Shown: one piece after another, positions 9,037 through 56,998 of the stretch
Layout: every line of letters begins with the position of its first letter
Numbering within the stretch: position 1 is the stretch's first letter
Source of the DNA: Cladocopium goreaui
Taxonomy: Eukaryota; Sar; Dinophyceae; Suessiales; Symbiodiniaceae
DNA length: 64,000 bases
Direction of reading: 5' to 3'
Assembly (NCBI GenBank): GCA_947184155.2
Contig: CAMXCT020000507.1
Coordinates: forward strand, 62,001 to 126,000
The notes under the pieces: model-generated
Told to the model about the DNA's origin: nothing
What the model saw: the letters and a program-made list of their open reading frames with translations, nothing else
Databases searched by the model: none
Program-made: the position numbers and the translations under genes

Positions 9037-9141
9037 GTACCCCATAGGATCCATGTATGCTATATTAATGCTAACATAAAGGGGGTATATTGATGGGATC
9101 CATGTTACCATTAATATAGCATACATGGATCCTATGGGTAC
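9037..9141. repeat. Palindromic element, GTACCCCATAGGATCCATG ends (A)
   Basis: About 105 bp whose left arm, GTACCCCATAGGATCCATG and onward, is mirrored at the right as CATGGATCCTATGGGTAC, with arms of about 33 bp around a centre containing AACATAAAGGGGG. It lies inside an intron position of the synthetase pseudogene. Confidence 0.85.
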
Positions 9142-39662: not shown

Positions 39663-40564
39663 CCTCGGAAGCGGCCAGACCCGATTTGTGGCCAATTTTT
39701 GATGGAAAATCTTGTTTCAAAGGCAGGCAACAATCCATCTCCAGCTCTTGAAATCAACTGTGTTTTTTTATCGGTTCCAAAGTCAAAACCATGATGCCCA
39801 CATCTTCACAATGCCAAGTACACTTCCGAAATGTTCCAAGGACACTTCTGTGAAGGTCGATGACATGTCTATAGCAACTCCCAAAAAGGTGACGAAAAGT
39901 TGGAAACCTGTAAAAAAAATGGAGGAAACCATCCTGGAAACACTTTTCAATTTTTTTGGGGGGGTTGCTTTACATAATCTCTGTATATTTCACATGGTAT
40001 ATATGTTTGTACCGCGCTAAACCCCCCAAAAAAACAATTCCCCTACTTGCCCAATTTCGAATTTTTGCAGGCTATCCATATTAAAAGCATCAAAAGCATT
40101 CAAAAACTACATCCCGCAATTGGCTGCCTCTTCGGCGGTTTACTACATGGATGTTTCAAACTGCCTATCTGCTGATAAGTCCCCAGCTATGGATAATTGA
40201 ATATGTCTTAATCAGCCTAAATCATCCATAAATCCCCAGCGGATAATTGAGGATAATTGAATAGAGTAGATAGAGTAGTATGTTTTAATCACCCCAAAAT
40301 TGAATCCAGTTCATCCCTGTCTAAATTCACATCTTCTAAATCTTCCGGCTTCACCCAGGATCTGATTCATCATCTGCACCTGCTTTCCGGCTTCACCCAA
40401 CAACATGACCTCTTTGGCGGCGTAGCCCTTTGCCTGCGGATCACCAAAATCCGGGTGCAGTTTCCCAATGGCTGCAGTGAACTCACTATGGAGAAATCAC
40501 GGTTGGAGAAATGATGACAAATCCCATGACGGATCCATGGTGCTGGTATATATATATATTTTTG

Positions 40565-40604
40565 CAAAAGGGGCGTGTTTTTACAAAGGGGCGTGCTTTT
40601 GGAA
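40565..40604. repeat. GGGGCGTG direct repeats, left of the 41-56 kb module
   Basis: AAAAGGGGCGTGTTTTT followed by AAAGGGGCGTGCTTTT. The same motif recurs in the same orientation at 56,775-56,828 (three copies) and in altered form at 48,690-48,722. Confidence 0.7.
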
Positions 40605-41125
40605 CCCCTGGGATAATCCCTTGATAAAACCAAGATATCACCATAGATTCAAACTGTCCAATGGGGTTCTTAGCCAATAGCATCAGGTCCCTGTGCCAAT
40701 CTCAAGGGCCAACAGGCCCAAAGTAGCGCGCTTGCGCTTTTTTGACCCCAGACGAATGCAGCTCTGAGCTTATGCCAGGGGCCTCAGAGGTGATGTGTGA
40801 TGGATCGACCAAGAATGTGGCATTTGGTTTACCTTGGAAACATGGGTTGAACTTAAGAAGGTTGGACCATTACCTGCAATTCATCACAATGTTCCAAACA
40901 AAGTGTTATATCTAGTGTAAAGGGTAACTTTTCGTTCCTGATAGATAACCGTTACATATAATATCATCATATAGTAAATCCTTAATATAACCTGAATATG
41001 ACCTGACAAAAGAAGTCAGGCTGACAGCTGAAGACACCCATCCATCCAAAGTGTGTTTGGAGGTTTGTTTTTCTCTCTAGCGACGTATTTGGCTCAATCT
41101 CTGAGTTGTCACAGCTTTCTCAGCT

Positions 41126-44100
41126 ATGGCAGCAGCCGATCCTCATGCTCATGCTGCTAAGGCGGACATTGCTGATGTCCATATGGAGTGGGAGGGTGAC
41201 CGTGTTGTTCGCCGACAGGTGAGGGAGAACAAATGTTTGTTCAGATCAGAAAAGAACACCGAGGATGTGCCCCATGTGAACGTCAAATCTGCCAGTGCCA
41301 ACTATGATGTCCTTTTACCGTTGGCCCGTCGGATGGTTGATGAACATGGGGAGTGTCTCATGGTGTCCATTCCTGCCCTGGTACTAGAGACACTGAGATC
41401 AATCTTCTAGACTTATGTTTTGTGTGTGTGTTGTGGGGGGTTGTTAGGTATTGGTTTGAACACATGTTTTATAAACCCCTTTTCCAGGTTCTGACATCTT
41501 ATACTGACAAATTCCAACCATTCCCCATCCCGCACTTAGGATTACCAAGTTGGGAATTTCCATGGCAGTCCCCCTTGAGAAGAAGAGGATTCAAATTGAT
41601 GCCTGGCTAGCCAAGAAGTACATGGTTCTTCTTAAGCGAAAACTTCAGCGAGGACAGGTACCGAGGAGTGGGGCATTCCGTCAATTGATGGCGGCAGTTT
41701 ACCCAGATCGATTTGATGGCCCGGACCAGGCCTGGTAATCATAACACTATGTTTCCACTACCATAAAGTTTTGGGGGGTTCCTGTTGAGGTCTATGAAAG
41801 GGGTACATTTCTTTTTTGTCTAGTATGAAGTTTCCCCTCCTAAACTGTTCAGAAAGTTTCTTCCAAATTTACCGTGTCCCTCCCACTTTAGATGTTGTTT
41901 CGCTGTGCAGGTGGTTCAGTTCGATGAGAGAGATGAGGAAGACAGCGACAAGGAGGAGGACCCATCGGTCTCTGACGCCGCATTGACCGAGAATGATGGT
42001 GTTGAAAGTGATTCTATGCCGGTGATGGATGATGAAATTCCTGCCTCTCAACCAGATATGAATGATGTGGTGGTGTTGTGTGATGGTGAAGATGATGGTG
42101 AAGAAGATGAAAGGGTAGGGGTCTTGGTGCAGGGTGAAGAGGAAGAGGAAGAGTTCTCCCCAGGGGACAAAGCGTTGCCATATGAGCCTGACAAGACACC
42201 CACGAAAAAGGCCCCCACCAGTTCGAACAAGTCGGCTGGCTCAGCTTCCCAGACCAAATCCAAATTTCATATCTTTGATGATGATGATGACAAGAGAAAT
42301 TCTACACCAGAGCCCGACTTTGACAAGGAAACGTTTGTAGATGGGAAGGGTGGTAGCAATGGTTCAATCCAAGAGTTGAAAGCCAAGTTGTCTAACCTAC
42401 GCAGGCAAAAGTCCGCACTGAAACTGGGTTTCAAGATTTGTTTTCCATGGTTTAGTTATGTTCACCCGCAAAGGTTTTCTATGAGTAATATGTTTTTGTG
42501 TGTTTGCGACATTGCATTATATTATGTTTACCATCGGTTATATAACGTTTTTTTGCCTACCCCTCCGAACCCTTACATTAACCCCATGTTTCTTCCTGCC
42601 TGCCTAAGGATTGCAAGCCAGCCAAGTTCGATCAAGCAGCCCAAACAAGCAGTTGAGCTGATTGAGGTCCCAGATACTCTTGGTTTTGGGGGTGATGAGG
42701 TGGATACCTGCCCCATGAATCTAGAGGAGTTCATGGATGATTTCATGAATGAAGAGGTTGTTGCGGACGTGGAGACTGAGCCCCTTCACAATGCCGTATC
42801 TGGGGTGAAAGTTTGTAAAAATGATTTTCTGGGTTTGCTTATTCTAAGATAGTTTCAATCTGGTTGGGAAACGCCCCAAAGCCTTCAGAATGTCCCTCAT
42901 GCTTCAAATTATGCCATGTGCATGTGCCATGTCAGTTTGTGCTATCAGGTACTTCTTCGACGCCAGCAACTTGCTTTCAAACAGAAGGCAGATGAAGATG
43001 ATGATGATGATGAAGGAGGTGCAGGTACAGGTCAGCCAAAAGGAAGAGGAAAAGGGAAGGGTCGTGGCAAGGGAAAAGGCAAGTCTGCTGGCCGTGGCAA
43101 GGCCAAGGCTGTCGACAAGACTGAGAAACCTGGGTCCAAAACAGCCCACAAGAGGAAGGCAAAGAATGTTGCCCCAGAAGAATCCGAGCCATTGGCTGAA
43201 GAACCACCCGCAAAGAAAACTAGGACTAGGAAACCAAAGGCTTCAGTAGAGAAGGCCAAGGCTGATGAATCTGCCGTGGTGCAGCCTGATTTGGGTGGGG
43301 AGACCCCAGAGCCATCAGTGAGCAAGCCTAGGAGGTCGAGGGCTAGCGCCACCAACAAGAAGGACAAGACAGACGACAAGGTTCCAAAAGACAAAGGTGC
43401 CAAGGTTCCCAAGACTCAAAAGAAGGCTTCGCAGACTGACACAGGCATGGACAAAAAAACAAAGCAGAAGAAAGAAACCCAGAAGGATTCCAAGAAAGGA
43501 GGGGAGGATTCTAATGGCAAAGAGGTCAAGGAGGGGGATGATGATGAGAGCCTCAAGTCGTTCGCTCGCCGTGCTCGCCCCTCTTCCAACCCCTGTGCAA
43601 TTGCCAAATGGGATGCTGTTCGCCAAAGTTTCAATGACACCATCCGCTCCCTTGCCATTCAAAAAGCTTCCGCTCATGAGGACGGTGTTGGAAAATGGTG
43701 TTCTTTGTGTTGTGCTTTTGGTTTTGCCATTGGTTTCTTATGTTCTTTAAAACTGCGTTTAGTGTCTGCCCCCCCAGTTTGTAATGTGTGTTCATCTGAC
43801 TTTACCCTGGCATTACATTCTCCCACCATTCAAACGTTTTGTTTTTCCATGGGTTGCCCCAATAGTGTCACATGCAAACCTGCTCTAATGCATATCAGCT
43901 GCATTATTTTCCAAAGAGCATAACAACAGTAGGCTGTTTACCTTCAAAGGTTTCCTTGGAGTGACAGACTATTCGCTAGCCTACCTTCTAGGATGCAACA
44001 TTAGTACAATGCATTTTCTGTTGTCCACATCCATTTACAGCCTCTTCTGTTTGTTTCCGGCCTTGGAACTTAGAACCAAGTTCATACGTTCTTCTTCTTA

Positions 44101-44373
44101 GTATTATGCACAGCTTGATGGATTATAGTTATGAATATTGTGGTCCAACCTCCTTCGTTAATATCTTACACATTGTATATATACCCAATTTTAGGAAATA
44201 GAACCAGCCAAAAACCCACAACATTCCAGTTATTCCTACATCCCTGGCAGTACGATTTCTGGACCTTCTGCTCGACCTCTTGGAAGGGGAAAAAGATTTC
44301 CGTGGAAGAATTCCCACAAGCTGCATCGCTTGCAGCTCATGATTATGTGGCCAAGACTTTTAACAAGCATTGA
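41126..44373 (+). CDS. Acidic/Lys-rich protein of the 41-56 kb module, 679 aa, six exons
   Basis: Exons 41,126-41,380; 41,550-41,729; 41,911-42,404; 42,609-42,804; 42,949-43,684; 44,195-44,373. Phases agree at every join; the donors after 41,729 and 42,404 are GC. The start is the first ATG, in TATGGCAGCAG. The order is a short N-terminal region, a basic segment (KKRIQIDAWLAKKYMVLLKRK), a long Asp/Glu/Ser-rich stretch, a VELIEVPD/EEFMDDFMNEE segment, then a nuclear-looking Gly/Lys-Arg tract (KGRGKGKGRGKGKGK) and a Lys/Pro-rich linker of about 180 residues before SFARRARPSSNPCAIAKWDA and a C-terminal YDFW segment. No catalytic motif is seen. A DNA- or chromatin-binding partner of the next genes is inferred. 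The exon 1/2 junction is the least certain. Confidence 0.68.
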
Positions 44374-45396
44374 TGTGACTAGAACACACTCCTGAGATCA
44401 CGCTGAAATTTTGTGGGGTCCATGGATGTGCTTAACTCTTACCCACGCACTGCTCACTCTTACCAAATTATCCAAAAACAATATTGGGATGTGATTTGCC
44501 CTTTTGGTGTTTGTCAACAACTTTGGTATTGAATCCTCAGAAAAAATCATGGCAGCCAGTGCGTTGGAGTAGTTGGCATTTTGGGGTCTGGATTACTGCA
44601 ACAAGCGGATCCACTATATTGAGCACAAGGCTTCCCAAAAATTATCGCTAGTCGGTGCAACTTACAAGTGCTTAGAGCACGGCCCAAAGTGAGTTGCCAG
44701 AAGTGAGTCATTTGAACTATAATTACTCAATAAAGATCAGATTGTCTAAAAACAAACTGGTTCATTTATTCCAGCATCTTATCACCTACATATGTAGCTA
44801 TGGGTAACTCCAGGGTGACAGTGCACGCATTTGATTGCAAATCAGAGCGACATCTACCTCATGTGCCTGCGTGGAAAAAAACAACGCTGATTCCCTGGGA
44901 CCTCATCCTCTGAAATGTCAATGTGTTTGATTCCATTGAATTCTACGTGTAATACCACTCAAGGCAGTTGGGCAACAATTTAAGATTTTATATCGTAGGA
45001 ATTTGGGAATTCTATCATAGAGTTACTTGCACAAGATTGGAAACCAAATCCAATTGTTGCAATATAAAATTTCCCCACATCCCCAATGGGTCACACCAGT
45101 CGGGCTCCAAGAGCCAAGAGCCACACTGTCATCCCCTTGCTGCCCAGGTCTCATGGCAATGGCTGGCGAAGACGTTTGTTGCCTCACGAGGGCATTGCTG
45201 ACATGTTTGGCGCCCATGGTTCTGTGGCAAGGGTGTGGGATGTTTGTTTGAAACATAGGAGGTTCTAACTTGGAAGACATAAACATTATCTATATCATCA
45301 TGTTGTAGCATCATTCCAACAGAGCATTGTACCACTCACAGCGGCCGAAACAACAGCTGGGTGGCCCAAAAAAAGGGAGCTAGCTTCTAGGGCGCC

Positions 45397-48211
45397 ATGG
45401 CTGTGCCCAATGATGATTTTTCTCCACTGGACCGTGTCTTGAAGAGGCTTCATGCCAATGGCGCACCGAAGGTGGGGGGGTATCTACAATTTACAATTAA
45501 CCCCTTCCAGTCGCATGTCCTGAGCCCCAATACCAACAAGTTTGGGTCCCTGACCTTGAGAAGTTGTAGAATTGTTCCTTGCATCCTTTGCCTGCAATGT
45601 TGGGTATGGGCATGGGTGTCAAGCACCAAGCTCCTATTAAACCAACTAGAGAAACAGAGATGACGTATGATGAGTTTCAACCAGTTAAATCCACAAATCA
45701 ATTGAATCAAACTTCTGTATTCTGATGGGATGTCCGTCAGATACTGATGGCATTGGTGGTACTCCTCGCCCTGTCGGAGAATGTGCTGATATTTTCCGAG
45801 GCGAGGTCATGGGGGTTAAAGAACAATGTATATTATAAAATATCATATATAATCATATATAATACATATATATATATTTCCGACTTGACCTTTTTTTGTG
45901 AATCAGTTTGGTTTTAGATTCAATCTGAAAAAATATGAACCCATTCAAATCAAATCTGATCGAATATGATGAAAGAATGGTCCTGCCAGAGCATCGCTCC
46001 TGCACTGCAGGCCTATTCCTTTGTGGAACTCTTCTGTGGCCATGCTTGGGTTAGCCGGGTTATGCGGTGCAAGGGCCACCCTACTGCCCAAATGGATCTC
46101 TTGCTCACCAAGGAGAAGTTTCGATCATCACCCCAAAATCCCATGGATCTCCTGACAGATAGTGGGTTTTTGCCCCCTGTCCCTAATTTATTTCAGTTTC
46201 ATATGTAGCTGAGATTGGACCTTTGAAAGCTGCATTGATTTGAGTTGACTGTTACAAAAACTTTCACCACATGCTATCGAAAACCAAGGCTAGCTCTTGC
46301 CTCTATATTGAATGGGCGATTCGATGGATGTGTCTACCTCTTGGCTATGGTTTGTACCAGTTTTGTGGCGATCAATAGAGCTACAAACCAGCGCTACCCA
46401 GATTCTCCGCTAGGCAACACGCTGGTGCCTAGCGTTCAGATTGGAAACATCCTTGCAGCACGGCATGGGGCCTCAGCCAAGCAAAGAAGTGAGTGGGTGG
46501 AACCTTAGGCCATTCCAGCTCAATCTTCAAGGGGTTGAAGGGATATTTCCAAGACGATTTTCTAACTACAAACTGAAAAAGATACATTTGAATCCGGTGA
46601 TATCCCATGGGAGCCCAGGACTAATGATTTTTGAATTTGGAAGTATTTTCACAGGGCCAACATGCACCCATCAAACATTTACCATCCTGCCCAAAAAAAA
46701 GCACAAACTGACCGGGGATCATGCGTTATCTCCAATGCCATGGGTGATTTTGAAAGCAAACTATGCTGGTTGTGAGCCTCCCATAACAAGTCAGAGCAAC
46801 CCCCAGTATCAACATGCTCTTGAGTCTGAGATTCTTGTTGTGTTCCCTTTGTTAATGCTTTTGTTTTTTTACCAAAGAGTTCCAAATACTTGAGGCCGGT
46901 CAGCATATCAAAATGGTCTAAACTATTAAACTAAACAACATGCTGCCACCCATAACAAGATACCATTGGTTACATCTTTCATTCGAAGAATATCTGGGGC
47001 CCAAATCAGATACTACGCTTGAAGAAAATGGTCAAATATGGTCAATCTGTTTGCCAGTCCTTGGCCCCCATATGACCCCACAATCACAAACAAATTGCCA
47101 AGAAAACATATTACCAATCATTACCATAATACCATCAAAATTGATCTATGAGTCCATGAGTGCATTAGGACAGCTTTTCTATGTGGGATTTTCTGATTTG
47201 GGGATTTGTGGCCTATTACGTTTTGGGTTCCCTTCTTCTCCACCATGTTCTCTGTCAGCCCTGGCCAGCCCATTGGGTCACTCCACTGGTCTAGGTGCTG
47301 CCTGCTGATACACGCCTGTCTGGCCATGGGTGGATGCTTTGTGCTGGAGCAGCCGAGTTCGTCAACTTGGTCTTGGTTGCCACGGGTGAGGGAACTATTC
47401 CACCACTTGAAAGAGGTTGGGGAGGAACCAAATTAAACTAGACTAGCAACCACACAGTTCTAAGCAGTATGATAGATCGGTTAAAATCATAAATTGTAAT
47501 TTGGATCCTGGAAATTTTGAAATACTTACACGAAGGGTAAATTGAACAATTACTTTGGGGTCAGTCAAGTGGTTCAGGTTTGACCTTTGTTTCTCCATGT
47601 TTCTCCCAAAAGGTGTGGTCTGCGGGATGGTGGATGGCTCACTACAACAGCAAATTTCCCAAGCGACATCACGCCTGGAGCAATAGCCGAGAGATTAGAT
47701 TACTTGATATGGGTGTACTTTGTCGAGAGTACCAACGCAAACTTGCTACTCTTGGTGTCAAGTCCAGCAAGACCTACATATCTGGTGGCCGGAAGAAATA
47801 CGTGGGCACAAAACATCTCAAGGGTTCTGAGTCAGGGCCTTGGTGTGTTTCAACATTCTGGCATACTTGCCAATTTGTTTTCGGCCTGGGCTAGTTACAT
47901 GCACATGGATATGTATATAGAAATTCAAAGCCATATATATGTGTGTGTGTTCAGCGCCCGTGCCCAGGAACTACCCTCCGGCCTTTGGGAAGAAGATCTT
48001 CAAGATCCATTCCAGACTTGTCAGCACGAGGGTCCTCCGGGAAGCGACTGGTGAGTTCTATGACGCAATTGATGGACAAACCCTTTTCTCCATCTTAGAA
48101 TGGGGCGACCTTTGGAATGATGCAGACATGGTCTCCTGTCTAGCATGGCTACGAGCCAACAAACACCTCAACCTAGGATCTTGGAGGGATCTTTTCCCAT
48201 CTGAACTTTAA
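45397..48211 (+). CDS. ELFCG methyltransferase-like protein, 368 aa, seven exons
   Basis: Exons 45,397-45,471; 45,570-45,683; 46,011-46,165; 46,289-46,462; 47,295-47,415; 47,613-47,823; 47,955-48,211 sum to 1,107 nt with every codon phase matching and one stop at the end; the intron after 46,462 is GC-AG. Around residue 64 is SFVELFCGHAWVSRVMR, the shape of motif I (SAM-binding FxGxG-like loop) in Rossmann methyltransferases; TAQMDLLL follows as a motif-II-like strand ending in an acidic residue. Next come AMVCTSFVAINRAT, a second core strand GGCFVLEQPSS, then WWMAHYNSKFPKRHHAWSNS and NYPPAFGKKI. I see no PCQ of cytosine-C5 or clear (D/N)PPY of amino-methylases; VLEQP may take that place. Substrate unknown; catalysis is inference. 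The frame is intact. Confidence 0.8.
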
Positions 48212-48689
48212 ACAAATTTGATCCTTCATGTTTGGGCGTCCCAATTTTTCAGTTCGGTTGGGAATGCCAGCCCAAAGAAGGTGAATGCTAGTTGTGCATT
48301 TTAATTTCAATGCTTTGGCTGGGACACAGCTTTAGATGTGTTTTGAAAGCCTAAATGAAGAAACAATTCGTTTGCGTATGAAATTTCCAATGCTTTGATA
48401 TGCCAGCTCAGCTGAAAAGGATGGTGTCTAGCACTTGCAATCGGTTTTTTGCAGTCATGTATGGAGTGACGTGGGAAACATTGCATATCATGAGTGCCCT
48501 GGAAGATTTTGTGGGGAATTGGAGGGATATCTTAATTTTATACAAGAATATTCAATGTTTTCTCCAATTTTAAGGATGTTTATCATGTTTTTTGGCCAAT
48601 ATTGCACCATTTCACCCGTACATGAAAATACGTGCAAACTACGTGCAAAACACGTGTTTTGCACGTGCAAAAACCCGTACGCGTACAAG

Positions 48690-48722
48690 GGGCGTGGATT
48701 TCCATACAAGGGGCGTGGATAG
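48690..48722. repeat. GGGGCGTGGAT direct repeats inside the module
   Basis: Two copies of TACAAGGGGCGTGGAT in the spacer between the second and third genes, embedded in ACGTG/CGTAC-rich sequence (48,620-48,750). Related to the flanking GGGGCGTG repeats. Confidence 0.65.
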
Positions 48723-48954
48723 CCGTACAAAAACACGTACAAAATACGTATTTTTCCTGGTTTTTGACCATGCCAATTTTTGATGGTTTTGTCAAAAAAA
48801 AACATGAAAAATCAAGGAAAATCCATCAAAATTCCTTGGAATGTGTTTTTTTCCCCTGGCCACCGACTATCCTGCCAAATCTGGGCCGAAGATCGTGGCT
48901 CAACCAGGCATCGGCCTGCAAAAGGCTGGGGTTTAGGTGATTTAGGGGCTAGAA

Positions 48955-51900
48955 ATGGCACCTACAAAGCTTGAATCTCGCCAATGGTCTTGTTCAGAGC
49001 TAGCTGGCTCCAATGCAGAGATGCTTCAAGTGAAACGTGAAGCAGAAAGCAAAGAGGAACTTGAGCGAAAGATCAAGGAGCCTAGCAGTTGTTCAAATTG
49101 TTTTTCACACTGGTCTCACAGTTTCCCCTTTCAAACACGCAGATCCTGTTTGCAAAGGACTACGAACGAGAGATTCTAGCTCTGAGAGGTCAAGTTGATG
49201 AGTATGATGACAATGTTGAAGTTTCTTATTGGCATTTAGCATATAGATCCATATATATAGATAATGTATATCCCTATAGTGTTTCTGTGGTAAGCAAACC
49301 CCTATAGATCATTATTCTTGGTGGCCACCTGCCAAGGAAGCTGACACTATCCCAGTATCCTGTATGCAAGTGTTGGGAACTCGCTTTGTGGATTGTTACG
49401 ACTTTGGGGAGATCTGGAAACACACAATGTCCACCATTGATTTGGTATTTCCAAGTTGTTCTCATCCAATCCTTTGATACCTAAAGAGTTGAGGCTACAG
49501 AAGAGGAATTGAAAAATTCCAGGATGAATGCTAACAAAGGGAAGAAGCCAGCAAAGTCAGCACCCACAGCTGCAAAAGCAGCACCGGCACCCAAGTCAGC
49601 GAAGACAGCTTCGTCTGCCCCTGTGACTGCAGCAGCTGCAAAGGCGGCACCCCCTTCCAAAGTGAGTGGGAAATCCAGCAAGGAGTCGGAGACCTCAGTC
49701 AAAGATGGGAAGCGGTGCCCCAAAGTTCCTGAAAGTACACCAGAGGTTGTTCAATCCCCGGCGCCACCAGTGTCCAAGCGTCAGAGGGGTAAGCAGCCAG
49801 ACCCAGACCCTAACTCTCAAATCGACTCTTTGAAGCAGGCCTGGGATCATTGATTTTGTTTGCAAGTGGTTTTCAGAAATATTATGCCAGGTATTTTGCT
49901 GATTTTTCTACATGTTGAATATCTGAACTTGAAAACTTCCCATCCATGTAGGCAAATGCCAAGATGCAAGCTCAGCTTGACCTGATGGCAAAAGAAATGG
50001 AAAAGGCTAAGAAAGTTCAGAAGAGCTCCCCTGGTACGAGTTCCACTACTGCCACTCCAAGTGCAAAGCACCCAGGTCCATCCCCGGCCTCGGCTAAGCC
50101 ACGTGCTTCGTCCAAGGTTGCTCCTCCTGACGCACCAGGGTCGGACAGCGACAACGAGGAGCTGACCCAAGGTGCAAAATTGGGCCGGCTGAGTCGACTG
50201 TGCGAGCGAAAGCCAAGTGGCAAGTTACACGTCCCACTTGAAGTACATGAGAAATGGCTCCAGAAGGGCCGTGCTAGGGATGAACTCTTGGAACAACTTG
50301 AAGCAAGTGACTGGAATCCGGACAGGGTTTGGTAAACTGGTGCTTCAATTTGATCCTCAACATCTTGATTTCTTGACATCGTTTCACCACAAAATTATAT
50401 ATATACTATGCATTGAGCCCTTCAAAGACTTCCACCCTGGGATGTCCAGACCAATAAACAATAAACAATAAACTATAAACAAGTTTATGCGTTCCTGCTG
50501 TTCTCTTGGCCATGATGCATCACTCACCCCTGGGAAGGATGCATTCGTGAAGAAAGTCACCAAGGTCCATGAGACTACCGCCAAGAAAAAATCAACCAAT
50601 AGAAGAGGATGGTATACCAAAGAAGCTATGGAGAAAAAACTTCAATGGAGCAAGTTCCTAGGATCAAACTGGTATCTTCTGAGCTCCTACATGCTGAGAT
50701 GTACGAAGTTCTCTCCTATATAATATCTGCATGTACACATTTTGTAACCATCCACCATCATAGCTAGTACCAAACAGGGTTGTACAGATTGCCCGCTTCA
50801 GGTCATACATCGCAGGCGTTGTCAAGTACTGCGAGAAGGAAGGGAACGAACACCTATGGAAGAAACTTGGTGGCTCTTTTGCCTTCATTGGGTCTTTACG
50901 TGCCACAAAAAAAACATGTTCAACATCTTTCAACTTTCAGCTGAAAGCAATTCCTTTCCTGCCCCCATGACTTTATCCTTCACATCATGTCATAATGTAT
51001 GGTGACTTTGTTGGATTAGTGGGCCCAAGGAAAGACAAGTACAATAAGAAGATTCGAAAATACTATGTGGAGACTGCTGAGTCCGATGAGTCGTGCGGTG
51101 AAGATGTTGAAACTTTGAAGGAAACGGAAGAGCTTGAGGTGAGGCATCACTGACAACCATTCACATAGAAATCCAATTTAGGGTATTTAATATGTGGTCT
51201 CCCTGTTTCCAGCTCCCATCTCGCTCCTGCAGGCTGACAGTCCAGTGCGATTCCAAAGGTTGCAAGGAAAGTCAAAGGCCTTGGCAGAGTTGCCATCCCA
51301 TGGTGAAGAAAGTGAGTCTGAGGAAGAAGATGCCAAGGGTAAGTCTGTGCAGGCCAACGGTGGCCCACAGGAGAATTGTTATTCAGTCCAATAGGGTATT
51401 CCAATTCCAATTTTTGATGTTTCTTCTAGTGAGTGTTTGTTAATCAAGGGGTTGTAGTGTAGGCTTTGCGGTTTGTTTCAAAACTCTTATCCCTGAGCAG
51501 GAGTACAAAAACATGAAGAAACTTGGTGATTCCCTGTTGGCCCGTTCGGCCAAAGTCACTGACCTGATGTCAAAGTTGGAAAGTCATGTCCAAGAAAAGC
51601 CGGAGGGATCCATGGAGAAGAAACGTGTTACCAGGCCAGGGGTTGAAACAACCAACACAGAACCATAGATGTTTTTTCCCAATCTCTATCCCACCATTTA
51701 TTCTGACCGATCAGACCCCCTTGGCCAAGGACTTTGAAGTCACTGGAGAATGCCATCGAGATCCTGGAAAAGGAGTTCGAGGGAATCGAGGCAAAGAAGG
51801 CCGAGGTATCGGACTTGCTGTGTGACAAGATCGAAGAGAAGCAGAAAGAGAAGCTTCTTACTTACATGAATGCATGTATATACAGTATACATCATTTATT

Positions 51901-52183
51901 GAAGTGTCCTCAAGAAATAGAACACTGCAAATGGAAATTCAACTTGCCAAAAGGAATGATTAGTGTTCAACACGTCCAAGGCTTCTAGATATGGTGCATG
52001 TTCAGATCAAGGAGACAACTTTGGCGTGTCTAGCCAGCAAACTTAACCTGAGCAGAACAAAAAACATACTGTACAGCAAATGTCGTGAGAGTCATTGTTT
52101 CCTATCATATGCTATGTTTTTTTTCCATACCTTGCTATCCAAGCAAACTCAATGATAAGGTGCGCAAAGGTCACCACGGCTGA
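48955..52183 (+). CDS. Coiled-coil, Ala/Lys-rich protein of the module, multi-exon
   Basis: Exons with matching phase: 49,952-50,326; 50,538-50,653; 50,802-50,869; 51,020-51,138; 51,233 to about 51,338; 51,501-51,634; 51,730 to about 51,870. The first exons (48,955 to about 49,080; 49,143 to about 49,230; about 49,495-49,838) and the last (KLNDKVRKGHHG, stop near 52,183) are less certain at their edges. An N-terminal coiled coil (KREAESKEELERKIK) precedes an Ala/Lys/Pro linker, a conserved-looking core (TNRRGWYTKEAMEKKLQWSK, SYIAGVVKYCEKEGNEH, RKDKYNKKIRKYYVE), an acidic ESESEEED patch and a second coiled coil (ENAIEILEKEFEGIEAKK). No enzyme motif; a structural or DNA-binding partner is inferred from position. 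Confidence 0.58.
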
Positions 52184-53024
52184 GCAATCGGGGAAGAAGC
52201 TTATATGCATTCAAGTTTTAAAGGGTGGAACCTGCATGAGAATGATACTACTTTTCGATTCAATCTCCAATGGTCCATCATGGCCATCACCCTAAGGAAC
52301 CTTTTGAAGTCACTGCAGCAGCAGTGTTGAGATGCGCTGTTTAGGGGTTGAGCCTAGCTGATTTCAGCTATGTTGGTTTTGTGAAAGTGTGGCAATGAAA
52401 CTTGCCGCAACGAAATGATATCAAAGATTGGGGCAACGCACCAAGCCTTAAGCCTATGGCTTGGTTTGCGCTTTGTGAAGATCAAACGCTGGGATAACCT
52501 AGCTTTGGGTAGCGCGGGAAAAGACAACAGGGCTCTTGGCTATTTGAGCAGGTCAGTATATTGTTGTAAGGAACTTGTGGCATCAACACCAAATCCCTAG
52601 TGGCATCTTAGTCCTAGTCCCCAATCCCATCAACATTACAGTTAAGGGGGATGTACTACACACACAAGTTCGCTCGTGCTGCCAGGTAGGGCCGCCAACA
52701 ACGATCAACCAGATCGGCTCCTTCGTCACTATGCTCGGCTGATTTCCAACGGAGCCCGGGCACTCAAAATCCTGGCCGGGTTGGTGGGAAGAAATATGGA
52801 CACATGAATGTCCAGACACCCATGCTTTTGGCAGCTCAGCTATTTTCAGGGTCTTCAAGCATCATGGACAACACGTGTTGCTACACTGCAAGCCTGACAA
52901 AACTTGTCAAATTCTATGACTACCATAATGCTCGGCTAGGGAGTATTGATATGATGTTGGAACCAGGTGCCATCATTTCTGAACAAAGCAGTATCTATCT
53001 CTAATATGTTTTTGCTTTCCGGCC

Positions 53025-56000
53025 ATGGATCCACATGATGATGACGATGACCTTCTGTGCCTGCTGCTGTCTTATGATTGTCCGGTGACTGGGAAGAAAA
53101 GAACAGCTGGGTCCTATGACACCGTGGGTTCACCCATCCCAAAAAAAAAGTTCCTTGGGTGCAATATGTTGTATACGAAGCATCCTTCAAGAGTGAGCAA
53201 CTTTTAAGGCACAGAATTTCCTCCATGTTACCCCAGGCTCAACGTGACTGAACCAGATGAGAAGGCATCAGCATCGGCGTCACCCATGCCAACTTGCACC
53301 ATGTCCACTGGTGAGGACTTTGCTGACCCAAACTACGATGATTATTTCCATAGGGGAAACACCGGTGCCACAACACCCATGTGTCCTCAAGTCTCGTCAA
53401 AGGCAACTGCCATGGCAAACCGATCTGCCGATTGGCTGAAGTCACCCTACGTGTTACTTTTTGATTTTTGAGAATAGTTCTGATACTTGTCATCTTACAA
53501 ATGTTGTTGAATCCCAACTGGCAGTACCCCACCTGTGTCGTTTTTTTTGGTTGAACTAAGGAAATCGCTGCCGCTGCTCCCAGCGCTCAATTCTTTGCTG
53601 AAGTTGGTGCCACTTTTACTGCTGATGGCTTTGATTGGGGGCAGCTCAAGTCACATGGGCTTTTTTACCGATGCCAACGGTCAGAACATATGCTTTGTGG
53701 AAAATTGTTAGCACACTGCAAAGCTCAAGTAAGCACTTTGAGGGAGGAAATTGGTGTTCGAATTTGTTGCTTCAAAATTGGTATTACGTCAAATCCTCCT
53801 CTTCGGTTTTCGACTTATGTGGAGAAGAATTACAGTTGTATGTGGGTCATTGCTGTCTCAAAAAGTGTTGATCAAATCAACATGCTTGAGGCAGCTGTCA
53901 TTTCCGAATTTCAAAAGCATGTCGGGTGCAAAAATGAGCCTGACACCGGTGGCGAGGGTGCGCTCAACCGGAAAAACCGAACAAAGCCACCCTACTATCT
54001 ATATGTCACTGCTGGCAGGGCAGATCAATCTCGATGGGTGGGATAGATCCCGTTGGGAAAAGGCGGAGAAAAAAAAAGTGTGTGTGTGTGTGTGAGGGGA
54101 TGCAGGTCATCATAATCATCGCACATGTTCATCAAGCACAGCAAGAGCAGGCACAACCAGGCATATCATATCTACTTGATTAATATCAAATCATCTGTAT
54201 ATAATATATATATATATATGAATCATCAAGATCTCAAGCCCAGCTCATTTTTCAAAATTGTGGAGTCATCAAGCGGATCTTTTTTGATAGTCTTTTTTTA
54301 GTGTGATCTTGGGATGTTGCCGAGGCTCCATGCAGCCACATCGTGGAGCTTGCGAAAGAAGAGGTTCGGAGAAACCCAAATGCCAGCAGAGCAACCAAAG
54401 AATTTGCTGATATCGACCCAGCCCATGCAGAAACAAGGTGCCATGCTCTATTTCGCAAGTACGGCTGTAGTGCCCCAGTGGAGCTTTCTTACATCAAGTT
54501 GGGACCTGGCAACCTCCAAAAGTTTGCAATCATTTTGTTTTCCGATTGGGCAAAACTGTTGTTGAACACTGGACGTTTTTGCCGACAGCTATGTGGTGTG
54601 AGCACCTTCCGTGAGATGAAAGAGGTGCTAACAGAATTTTGGGATCGCTACAAGGCTTTACATAGCAACCATGACCTTTTCAAAATGGAGGATGTGGACC
54701 TCTCAATGACTGTTCCAGTGTATTCACACACAGATGAAGGGCGCTCATACAAACACCAGCCGCTTTGGGTTTTATCCACACACGGATGCATCGGGAGGGG
54801 CACCAAAACCTACATCAGCCGCAAACTCCACTTGGTTCCTATCAAGCATCGGCCTATGGGACTGAATTTCATTGGTTCGACATGGGCCACCCAATTTATG
54901 ACGGCTTCAGCCCTTAGGGCTTCCTTGAATGAGACACCAGGGGCCATGGACAAAATTTTGAAAGCCTATGCTGAAGATATGTCAAGGCTAGCACATGACG
55001 GATTGGTTGGCCCGGAGGGACATATCAGGATCATCCACTTGGGAACAAAGGGTTGCCTAGTGTGAACTCAAAAGGTTTTTGGTTGTCTGGGAGAAGTATG
55101 TTTTAGTATGATCAAGGGTTGATGTTTCTTTTTATTGTGGCATCCTTCTGCTCCACCTAGGAGATCTCCCGGCGCTAGCAAAGTTGGCAGGCATGAAGCG
55201 GACGCATTCCCACGTGCCAAGGGCAGGGAGTTCAAAGAAACCTTGTCGGGGTATTTGCTGGATGTGTGATGCTGGGTTGGAAGGTAGAAATGCTGATGAA
55301 CAATCCCACCCATATGAGGACACATCAGTAAATGCCAGTTGGACTACTACTTTGGGTTCGACTTTGCCATGGGATTCGGAACCTGTGTTGCTGTCTCACC
55401 TTCCTTTGGACCAGAACGCAAAACAATCCTTTTTCATGACAGATATATGGCACAATTTTCATCTTGGTTTATGCAAGCATTGGATTGGCAGCAGCATCAT
55501 ATGTGCCATAGAACGGCTGGACTGTTTTCCTGTTGCTGCGGTCGATGCCCGGTTTCAATGGTTCACAGATGACTTTGCAGAATTTTGTCAGCAAAACAAC
55601 ATCCACCCGTATTTGAAGGAGATCAGCAGAGAAACCATGAGCTTTCCACAGGCCAAGTCTTGCCCAGTTGGTCGGTGGAGCAAAGGCGTTGTGGCAAGTC
55701 AGTTCATGCGGTACCTAGAAAACTTCTGCGACCGTTTTGTGACCAACCAGACTGATGATCAAGTGATGCTCACAGTGGTTTTTGGCAATATTACTTGAGA
55801 AAAATGTTTGATTTACTGTTTTCCTTTTTGCTCTTTAGTTCCTTGGGCAAATACAAGTTGACAAGTCTATGTTTGATAGTGCTGGGGGACTATATGAGGC
55901 AAAAGCAACCAAAGCGATCAACATGGCCATGAGCTTTATGTATGCCAGTGGTTTCTGGATATTAGCACATCATGGATTGCAGCTGTCGAAACTCATCATG

Positions 56001-56321
56001 GTTTTCCTACAGGGGTACACCAAATGCGCTGAGTGTTGTTTGCGGCAGGGATTTCACCGCTTTGGCTTAATGCCAAAAATGCATTACATCCATCATGCGG
56101 CAGATAGACTGAGGAGGGAAAGTGCTCTTGGGGTGTGGGTTAAAAACCCGCTCTCCGAGAGCGTTCAAATGCAGGAGGATTTCATAGGACGTCCAAGCCG
56201 GCTCAGCCGGAGGGTGGATGTCCGCCAATTACATTTGCGGGTAGTAGAGAGGTCCCTAATCAATGTTCAACAAGCTCTGGAGAACTCAGATCAAGATAGA
56301 CGAGGGTTGGCGCCAAGTTGA
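53025..56321 (+). CDS. GIY-YIG-like nuclease joined to transposase-like region, 883 aa, six exons
   Basis: Exons 53,025-53,158; 53,237-53,450; 53,561-54,037; 54,325-55,051; 55,161-55,777; 55,839-56,321 give 2,652 nt in one frame with all phases matching. After an Asp-rich N-terminus (MDPHDDDDDLL), residues of about 185-270 have the layout of a GIY-YIG/T5orf172 nuclease: CFKIGITSNPPLRF, then LEAAVISEF with a likely metal-binding Glu, and GGEG. The remainder, about 600 residues, has ordered conserved-looking segments: VPVYSHTDEGRSYKHQPLW, GLNFIGSTWATQF, HSHVPRAGS, a CWMCDAG cysteine pair, TDIWHNFHLGLCKHW, CPVGRWSKG, MPKMHYIHH and ESVQMQEDFIGRPSR. The TDIWHN and PKMHYIHH pattern recalls DDE/RNase-H-fold transposases, but I cannot assign a catalytic triad. 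If the 54,037/54,325 join is wrong, a separate 277-aa nuclease gene would end at 54,046. Confidence 0.78.
53561..54046 (+). other. GIY-YIG-like domain exon
   Basis: An open exon of 162 codons that ends at a stop if the internal donor TGG|GTGGGA at 54,037 is not used. It carries the whole GIY-YIG-like domain (CFKIGIT, PPLRF, LEAAVISEF, GCKNEP, GGEG, PPYYLYV). Alternative use of this donor would give either a free nuclease or the long fusion. Confidence 0.6.
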
Positions 56322-56774
56322 AATCAACCTCATTTTTTTGAGCTAGTCCCCAAAAACAAATAATCCATTCAGTCCACTTTGACAGCAATTTCCTGGGGGT
56401 TTACTATAGTGTTGCCAGTGTCAACCTCGGCCAGTACTAGAACCGAAAGCAAGGATGGAGCAAAGCGTGCCAAATGGCAAAACTGGAGGGGAGATGGGGA
56501 ACCTGGTGTTTGCAGGTATGTGTTCTTTTTGAATTGCTAAATTTTGATGGGAGTTATTTTATGTTACCCTTGGCAAAGTTTCCCCAAAATACTAAAGGTT
56601 GGGTTTGAAGTTGATCTTGTACGGCAGTTCAACCAACAACAAGACCAGTTGTGTGTTGACTATTGCTAATTCTTGGTGGTTATGTATTTAGCAGCAAAGC
56701 ATCATCAAGCATCATGAAGCATCATCACATGAAATAAGGGGGCATGTAAAGAGTATGTAAAATATCAAAAATAC

Positions 56775-56828
56775 AAAGGGGCGTGTTTTTGTGAAAGGGG
56801 CGTGTTTTTATGATAGGGGCGTGCTTTT
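56775..56828. repeat. GGGGCGTG direct repeats, right of the module
   Basis: Three tandem units AAAGGGGCGTGTTTTT, AAAGGGGCGTGTTTTT and TAGGGGCGTGCTTTT about 450 bp after the stop of the last module gene. The same unit in the same orientation lies about 560 bp before the first gene, at 40,565. Confidence 0.75.
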
Positions 56829-56879
56829 AAAAAAATATGGGTAGGACCTATAAATGAAGGACAAGTGAGATGAAGGTAT

Positions 56880-56966
56880 ATGTATATTAATGCTAACATA
56901 AAGGGGGTATTTCTTGATGGGATCCATGGCACACCATATATAGCAGCACTGGTGTGCCATGGATCC
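56880..56966. repeat. Palindromic element with GGATCCATGGCACACCA arms
   Basis: GGATCCATGGCACACCA at 56,920-56,936 and its exact inverse at 56,950-56,966, preceded by ATTAATGCTAACATAAAGGGGGTAT shared with the elements at 9,037 and 22,838. The arms have changed while the centre is kept. Confidence 0.8.
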
Positions 56967-56998
56967 GTCATGGGAATGGCAGATGGAAATCACACAGC

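What the first reader, a model, noticed from the sequence alone, without database searches (positions are those of the whole stretch)
41126..56321. A four-gene, intron-rich module that looks like a giant mobile element or a domesticated one
Four co-oriented genes encode, in order, an acidic/Lys-rich protein, an ELFCG methyltransferase-like protein, a coiled-coil protein and a GIY-YIG-like nuclease fused to a transposase-like region. Three of the four assemble through 16 introns without a stop or phase error, which is unlikely for a decayed relic. The mix of a DNA-cutting domain, a possible DNA-modifying domain, basic DNA-binding tracts and a transposase-like core is what a self-mobilising or self-protecting element would carry. 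Spliceosomal introns, including GC-AG ones, inside such genes are unusual for a transposon. I recall similar protein segments as abundant unnamed proteins in Symbiodiniaceae annotations; that memory is unverified.
Basis: partly seen in the sequence, partly recalled or inferred. Interest (0 to 1): 0.9.

Follow-up and report, generated by a model that had tools for sequence, protein, structure and literature searches.

The report
Giant four-gene jumping element in dinoflagellate
The four intron-filled genes belong to a large (about 16-18 kb) jumping DNA element that has recently copied itself around this alga-like genome, and its machinery matches no transposon family that we could test it against.

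Summary
All four genes, not three, assemble stop-free (24 introns in my models). The window's 1.17-Gb genome holds 54 listed loci related to gene 4 (>=39% aa identity): 27 carry all four genes in order on one strand, 50 carry gene 3, none shows a wrong order or strand. Near-identical copies sit at unrelated sites with abrupt ends. All 6 left ends read are TA|CCTGG; all 14 distinct right ends are RGG|TAT. Complete copies span 16.2-18.1 kb; copies of one subfamily differ at 0-2 bases per 1.1-1.5 kb, so movement was recent. The window copy (about 40559-56876) lacks its outer ~70 bp on the left. Gene 4 joins a weak GIY-YIG-type nuclease match (T5orf172, below cut-off) to a conserved ~600-residue region without a Pfam match. 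Gene 2 keeps Cys/Glu motifs like those of DNA cytosine methyltransferases, unconfirmed by any profile. Best reading: a multi-gene DNA transposon of an undescribed lineage inserting at TA-rich sites. Movement is shown; enzyme chemistry is inferred.

The parts
40559..56876 (+). Element body in the window: similarity to the C3557 copy starts at about 40559 (the outer ~70 bp of the left end are missing here) and the right end is ...AAGG at 56876, followed by TA
40568..40599 (+). Left subterminal direct repeats (AAGGGGCGTG at 40568 and 40586)
41126..44373 (+). Gene 1: acidic and Lys-rich protein, 641 aa; exons 41126-41352, 41540-41729, 41911-42410, 42609-42810, 42967-43686, 44287-44373
45397..48211 (+). 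Gene 2: ELFCG protein, 356 aa, methyltransferase-like motifs; exons 45397-45460, 45741-45800, 45976-46165, 46289-46462, 47295-47415, 47613-47830, 47968-48211 (3 GC-AG introns; first two exons uncertain)
48687..48717 (+). Internal pair of the same AAGGGGCGTG repeat between genes 2 and 3
48955..52344 (+). Gene 3: Lys/Ala-rich, coiled-coil-like protein, 520 aa; exons 48955-49090, 49489-49838, 49952-50326, 50538-50653, 51030-51138, 51233-51385, 51501-51634, 51730-51871, 52297-52344 (first and last uncertain)
53025..56321 (+). Gene 4: 880 aa, nuclease-like domain joined to a ~600-residue conserved putative transposase; exons 53025-53149, 53237-53450, 53561-54037, 54325-55051, 55161-55777, 55839-56321 (first two uncertain)
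53561..54037 (+). GIY-YIG-type (T5orf172-like) nuclease exon of gene 4
55052..55160 (+). Intron of gene 4 absent from 8 of 8 other subfamily members aligned
56776..56827 (+). Right subterminal direct repeats (GGGGCGTG motifs at 56778, 56797 and 56816)
56874..56878 (+). Right terminus AGG|TA, shared with the other subfamilies as RGG|TA

Best explanation
A multi-gene DNA transposon. SHOWN: a unit of about 16-18 kb with four genes in fixed order, conserved ends (TA|CCTGG ... RGG|TAT), subterminal direct repeats and many insertion sites, recently copied. INFERRED: gene 4 is the recombinase. It would bind the AAGGGGCGTG-type repeats near the ends, cut at the CCTGG and RGG ends, and insert at TA within TA-rich DNA. 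The ~600-residue region would be the core (candidate acidic residues D143 in SHxDEGR and D343 in DxWHxxHxG, numbering of the first row of A12) and the GIY-YIG-type domain would nick target or donor DNA. Gene 2 would modify DNA, perhaps the element's own cytosines; genes 1 and 3 would be DNA-binding or assembly partners. The host's spliceosome removes the introns. The window copy lacks its left terminus and is probably stranded.
For: Fixed gene order: 27 of 54 loci have all four genes, 40 of 54 have genes 2+3+4, 0 of 54 are discordant. Control: 0 of 54 lie within 20 kb of any of the 150 scored reverse-transcriptase loci. Sharp ends with unrelated flanks at 14 distinct sites from five subfamilies (identity inside and outside). 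Same right-end letters in five subfamilies and same left-end letters in the three whose left ends were read. AAGGGGCGTG occurs 6 times in the 64-kb window, all on the + strand and all inside the element. 53 of 54 gene-4 loci have no stop in the matched stretch, although 52 of them differ from the window at 44-61% of residues, which implies selection on the protein. No reverse transcriptase, capsid or other foreign domain is recognised in the four full proteins.
Against: No Pfam match for the putative transposase and no PDB sequence match worth the name, so its chemistry is unproven. Terminal inverted repeats are only about 5 bp (TACCT...AGGTA), and no target-site duplication was proved: TA at both sides may belong to the element, and no empty site was seen because the search did not complete. 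The C391 and C3557 flanks show no longer duplication by eye. The first Tyr of the GIY-YIG motif is not conserved in the 7 rows of A13. Gene 2 failed every methyltransferase profile and comparison with Dcm.
Confidence: 0.8

Rival explanations
1. A host four-gene cluster dispersed by segmental duplication or split assembly (haplotigs), not by transposition.
For: Some contigs do repeat the same locus: C369/C6141 and C69/C5920 share flanks. The window itself holds a tandem duplication at 1-26,500.
Against: Fourteen sites have the same right end and unrelated flanks, with identity dropping from 99-100% to about chance within a few bases; right-end letters agree across five subfamilies.
Confidence: 0.03
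2. A retroelement or Penelope-like element whose GIY-YIG nuclease is the endonuclease, with TA-rich targets.
For: GIY-YIG-type domain and TA-rich sites; Penelope-like elements carry such a domain (PMC6431247, passages read).
Against: No reverse transcriptase in the four proteins; 0 of 54 loci within 20 kb of the 150 scored RVT_1 loci, which are only the best of 4498 candidates. Introns remain in the copies examined: relatives match exon by exon and the nuclease exon stays separate from the next.
Confidence: 0.03
3. An integrated virus or Polinton-like virus remnant.
For: Size range and gene number overlap; such elements occur in a dinoflagellate (PMC12721341, listing only).
Against: No capsid, DNA polymerase B or packaging domain recognised in the four proteins; short ends unlike long Polinton repeats (recalled).
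Confidence: 0.04
4. A very distant CACTA/En-Spm-type (CMC) element, enlarged as in red algae, rather than a new lineage. This does not exclude the best explanation; it would place it.
For: Giant En/Spm families of 16-20 kb with 4-5 ORFs are reported in Chondrus (PMC6431247, passage read). The layout D...CxxC...DxWH resembles CACTA transposases (recalled).
Against: Ends are CCTGG/RGG, not CACTA; 0 of 9 members match a transposase model in hmmscan at E<=10, only two chance families.
Confidence: 0.25

Closest known systems
Enlarged En/Spm (CACTA) transposons of Chondrus crispus (PMC6431247, passage read)
   Same: Size 16-20 kb, 4-5 ORFs, alga
   Different: Ends are not CACTA; no Transposase_21 match by hmmscan; GIY-YIG-type domain in one gene with the putative transposase; introns here (intron content of the Chondrus elements not seen)
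SymbioLINE-Dnmt and SymbioDIRS-Dnmt3 of Symbiodinium (PMC5890265, outline and section 6 read)
   Same: Dinoflagellate mobile elements carrying a (here only possible) cytosine methyltransferase
   Different: Those are intronless retrotransposons with PF00145 domains and reverse transcriptase; here neither is found and the unit appears to move as DNA
KolobokP (PMC9587614, abstract read)
   Same: DNA transposon with a transposase plus a homing-type nuclease
   Different: Small His-Me finger nuclease and long terminal direct repeats; here a GIY-YIG-type domain lies in the same gene model as the putative transposase, and no long terminal repeat was seen
T5orf172 / MUG113 (GIY-YIG superfamily) domains
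   Same: IG-T, Arg and Glu of the core kept
   Different: Scores below cut-off; first-strand Tyr not conserved

Membership tests
DNA transposon (general) | Same unit at unrelated sites with sharp conserved ends | tested here: met
   14 distinct right-end sites, 6 left ends
DNA transposon (general) | Terminal inverted repeats | tested here: inconclusive
   Only TACCT...AGGTA, about 5 bp, in the three subfamilies with both ends read
DNA transposon (general) | Target-site duplication | tested here: inconclusive
   TA beside 6 of 6 left and 14 of 14 right ends; empty-site search did not complete
CACTA/En-Spm (CMC) | CACTA termini | tested here: not met
CACTA/En-Spm (CMC) | Transposase_21-type transposase | tested here: not met
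   0 of 9 members match in hmmscan at E<=10; the family search of the genome did not complete and no profile-profile comparison was made
GIY-YIG nuclease (T5orf172, PF10544) | Score above curated cut-off | tested here: not met
   18.1 against 20 bits; 4 of 7 members match at E<=1
GIY-YIG nuclease (T5orf172, PF10544) | IG-T, Arg and Glu of the core | tested here: met
   I73 G74 T76 R82 E110 invariant in 7 rows; that these are the core residues is recalled
C5 DNA methyltransferase (PF00145) | Profile match | tested here: not met
   none for gene 2 or its relatives
C5 DNA methyltransferase (PF00145) | Motif I, catalytic Cys and Glu in order | tested here: inconclusive
   FCG in the 3 rows that cover it; C86, E140 and P142 invariant in 6 rows. 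hhalign to E. coli Dcm aligns only 25 columns at motif I, probability 1%
Penelope-like / retroelement | Reverse transcriptase | tested here: not met
   none in the four full proteins
DDE transposase | RNase-H fold with DDE/D triad | not testable with these tools
   structure prediction switched off

The most novel reading that the evidence does not exclude
The founding example of a new superfamily of giant eukaryotic DNA transposons whose recombinase combines a GIY-YIG-type nuclease with an undescribed catalytic core. It would travel with a dedicated DNA-modifying enzyme and two partner proteins, keep some two dozen spliceosomal introns, and account for part of the abundant unnamed proteins of dinoflagellates.
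Probability: 0.5. Interest if true: 0.85.

Novelty: new variant of a known kind. Interest (0 to 1): 0.77.

Why it matters
Dinoflagellate genomes are large and much of their repeat content and predicted protein set is unnamed (recalled). This gives a concrete, recently mobile unit with defined ends, so such proteins can be assigned to it and its movement assayed. If gene 2 modifies DNA, it would be a DNA-transposon counterpart of the methyltransferase-bearing retrotransposons of Symbiodinium. Introns retained, and apparently gained, inside a mobile element also bear on how introns spread.

Tried and rejected
A 19-bp perfect inverted repeat at 40522-40540/56957-56975 looked like the terminal repeats; it lies outside the ends, and its right copy belongs to a dispersed 94-bp repeat. 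Viral-contig scans gave no relative (one pattern hit, L001 was not examined). Pfam, NCBIfam, PHROGs and PDB searches did not identify the proteins beyond the weak nuclease match; one piece (51568-51822) was in a frame that my final gene-3 model does not use. A phage search with a gene-2 relative gave one hit at E=0.06, 20.5% identity. Left ends of the C369/C2913 subfamily were not reached, nor those of C841/C6028 in the first try; L066 was fetched and not examined, L065 was only scanned for the repeat, L071 was not used. A first automatic model of gene 4 cut false introns out of open exons and was replaced by hand.

Full report
What is in the window. The stretch 41126-56321 on the + strand contains four genes. 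The first automatic models were checked by hand, and all four read without a stop and with matching phases: 641, 356, 520 and 880 residues with 5, 6, 8 and 5 introns. Seven of the 24 introns are GC-AG, three of them in gene 2. The first two exons of genes 2 and 4 and the first and last exons of gene 3 have no support from diverged relatives and need RNA evidence.

Where it comes from. Size and GC-AG introns fit a dinoflagellate (recalled), but no call names it.

The four genes travel together. I searched this genome with gene 4 exon 4 (150 rows, the best of 681 candidates), the nuclease exon (104 rows), gene 2 (145 rows), gene 3 (89 rows) and gene 1 (51 rows). Of the 54 gene-4 rows at 39% identity or more, 50 have the nuclease exon 0.1-2.5 kb upstream on the same strand. 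Within 40 kb upstream on the same strand, gene 3 lies in 50, gene 2 in 41 and gene 1 in 31; all four genes are present in 27. None of the 54 has a partner in the wrong order or strand (gene 2 within 20 kb with all 145 rows; genes 1-3 within 25 kb). For one search I entered mostly one row per locus: 44 of 51 rows for gene 1 and 67 of 89 for gene 3 (the dropped rows are further exons of listed loci), and for gene 2 49 of 145 rows, chosen as the loci of this family. As a control, 0 of 54 lie within 20 kb of any of the 150 scored reverse-transcriptase loci. The 54 are not 54 independent insertions: C369/C6141 and C69/C5920 share flanks, and other pairs with equal scores were not tested. Lower counts for genes 1 and 2 are expected, because they diverge fast and the tool scores only the best candidates; real losses are not excluded. 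Below 39% identity the picture differs: of 96 rows only 14 have the nuclease exon and 5 have gene 2. Of 93 gene-2 loci, 47 have no listed gene 4, and 36 of 104 nuclease rows have none, so the domain families are also used elsewhere.

It has ends, and it has moved. The window copy and a copy on C3557 agree up to abrupt borders on both sides: 13 mismatches in 1244 aligned bases at the left and 1 in 181 at the right, then no more than a forced alignment gives. Their gene-4 stretch (2761 bp) differs by 6 substitutions and 2 short indels. Four copies of another subfamily (C136, C391, C757, C4089) differ at 0-2 of 1112 bases inside the right end, and three of them at 1-2 of 1515 inside the left end, with unrelated flanks. 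Three more subfamilies show the same at the right end, and one of these also at the left end. In all, 14 distinct right-hand sites from 16 contigs end in RGG followed by TAT, and 6 left ends from three subfamilies read TA then CCTGG. End-to-end lengths, interiors not read through, are 18.12-18.13 kb (C136, C391, C757) and 16.2-16.3 kb (C841, C6028); the C3557 copy spans 38.4 kb, because roughly 22 kb of other DNA lies within gene 3's first intron. The C3557 left end begins with the common CCTGG about 70 bp outside the point where the window copy starts, so the window copy has lost its left terminus.

Other signals. The word AAGGGGCGTG occurs six times in the 64-kb window, all on one strand and all inside the element: two near each end and two between genes 2 and 3. 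Related words lie near the other subfamilies' ends. These direct repeats are good candidates for binding sites of the recombinase; that is inference. In gene 4, 53 of 54 loci have no stop in the matched stretch, which at these distances implies selection on the protein.

What the proteins are. Scanned whole, the four proteins give one Pfam hit of note: T5orf172 in gene 4 (E=0.014, 16.3 of 20 bits). The nuclease exon alone gives 18.1 bits, and 4 of 7 members match at E<=1, with the IG-T, Arg and Glu of the core invariant in 7 rows but no conserved first-strand Tyr. The ~450 residues that I aligned from nine sequences have invariant SHxDEGR, GICxxC and DxWHxxHxG motifs and no family match. In gene 2 and its relatives an FCG motif is present in the 3 rows that reach it, and a Cys in a CSSF-like motif and an LE-P motif are invariant in 6, as in cytosine-5 DNA methyltransferases (motifs recalled). 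No profile supports this, and the comparison with E. coli Dcm aligned only the first motif at 1% probability.

How it most likely works. Gene 4's product binds the subterminal repeats, cuts at the CCTGG and RGG ends and inserts the unit at TA in TA-rich DNA. Whether the nuclease-like domain, the unnamed core or both cut DNA is unknown. Gene 2 may mark the element's or the host's DNA; genes 1 and 3 look like basic or coiled-coil partners. Retention of introns in the copies examined argues against an RNA intermediate.

Comparison. Enlarged CACTA elements of 16-20 kb with 4-5 ORFs are reported from a red alga (PMC6431247, passages), but the CACTA ends are absent here. Symbiodinium retrotransposons carry cytosine methyltransferases (PMC5890265, outline and section 6), and KolobokP pairs a transposase with a homing-type nuclease (PMC9587614, abstract). 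I found no description of this unit in the listings of seven searches of open papers; subscription papers, preprints and Repbase were not searchable, so 'undescribed' means only that. I therefore call it a DNA transposon of an unassigned lineage.

Noticed in passing
window 1-26500: About 13 kb is repeated in direct orientation (long copies 12.4-14.9 kb apart, mostly 97-100% identical): a tandem duplication unrelated to the element.
   Followed up: no
window 55052-55160: A 109-bp intron of gene 4 is absent from 8 of 8 other members whose frames run straight through, which suggests an intron gained inside a mobile element.
   Followed up: partly
window 56882-56975; 28-base exact matches also at 9061 and 22862: A dispersed ~94-bp repeat with an internal palindrome lies directly outside the element's right end; 40 of the 42 rows of the genome search are copies of it at 82-96% identity.
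   Followed up: partly
G000:C3557:519578-541942: About 22 kb of extra DNA lies in gene 3's first intron in this copy; its content was not read.
   Followed up: no
G000, e.g. L067-L070: Distant relatives of gene 2 (27-36% identity), some in single open frames, are among the 47 gene-2 loci without a listed gene 4; one multi-copy set (C2446, C1890, C198, C6016, C1125, C4780) may belong to another element.
   Followed up: partly
G000, rows: 36 of 104 nuclease-exon rows lack a listed gene-4 neighbour, for example C1889, C3354 and C6121: perhaps a sister element family.
   Followed up: no
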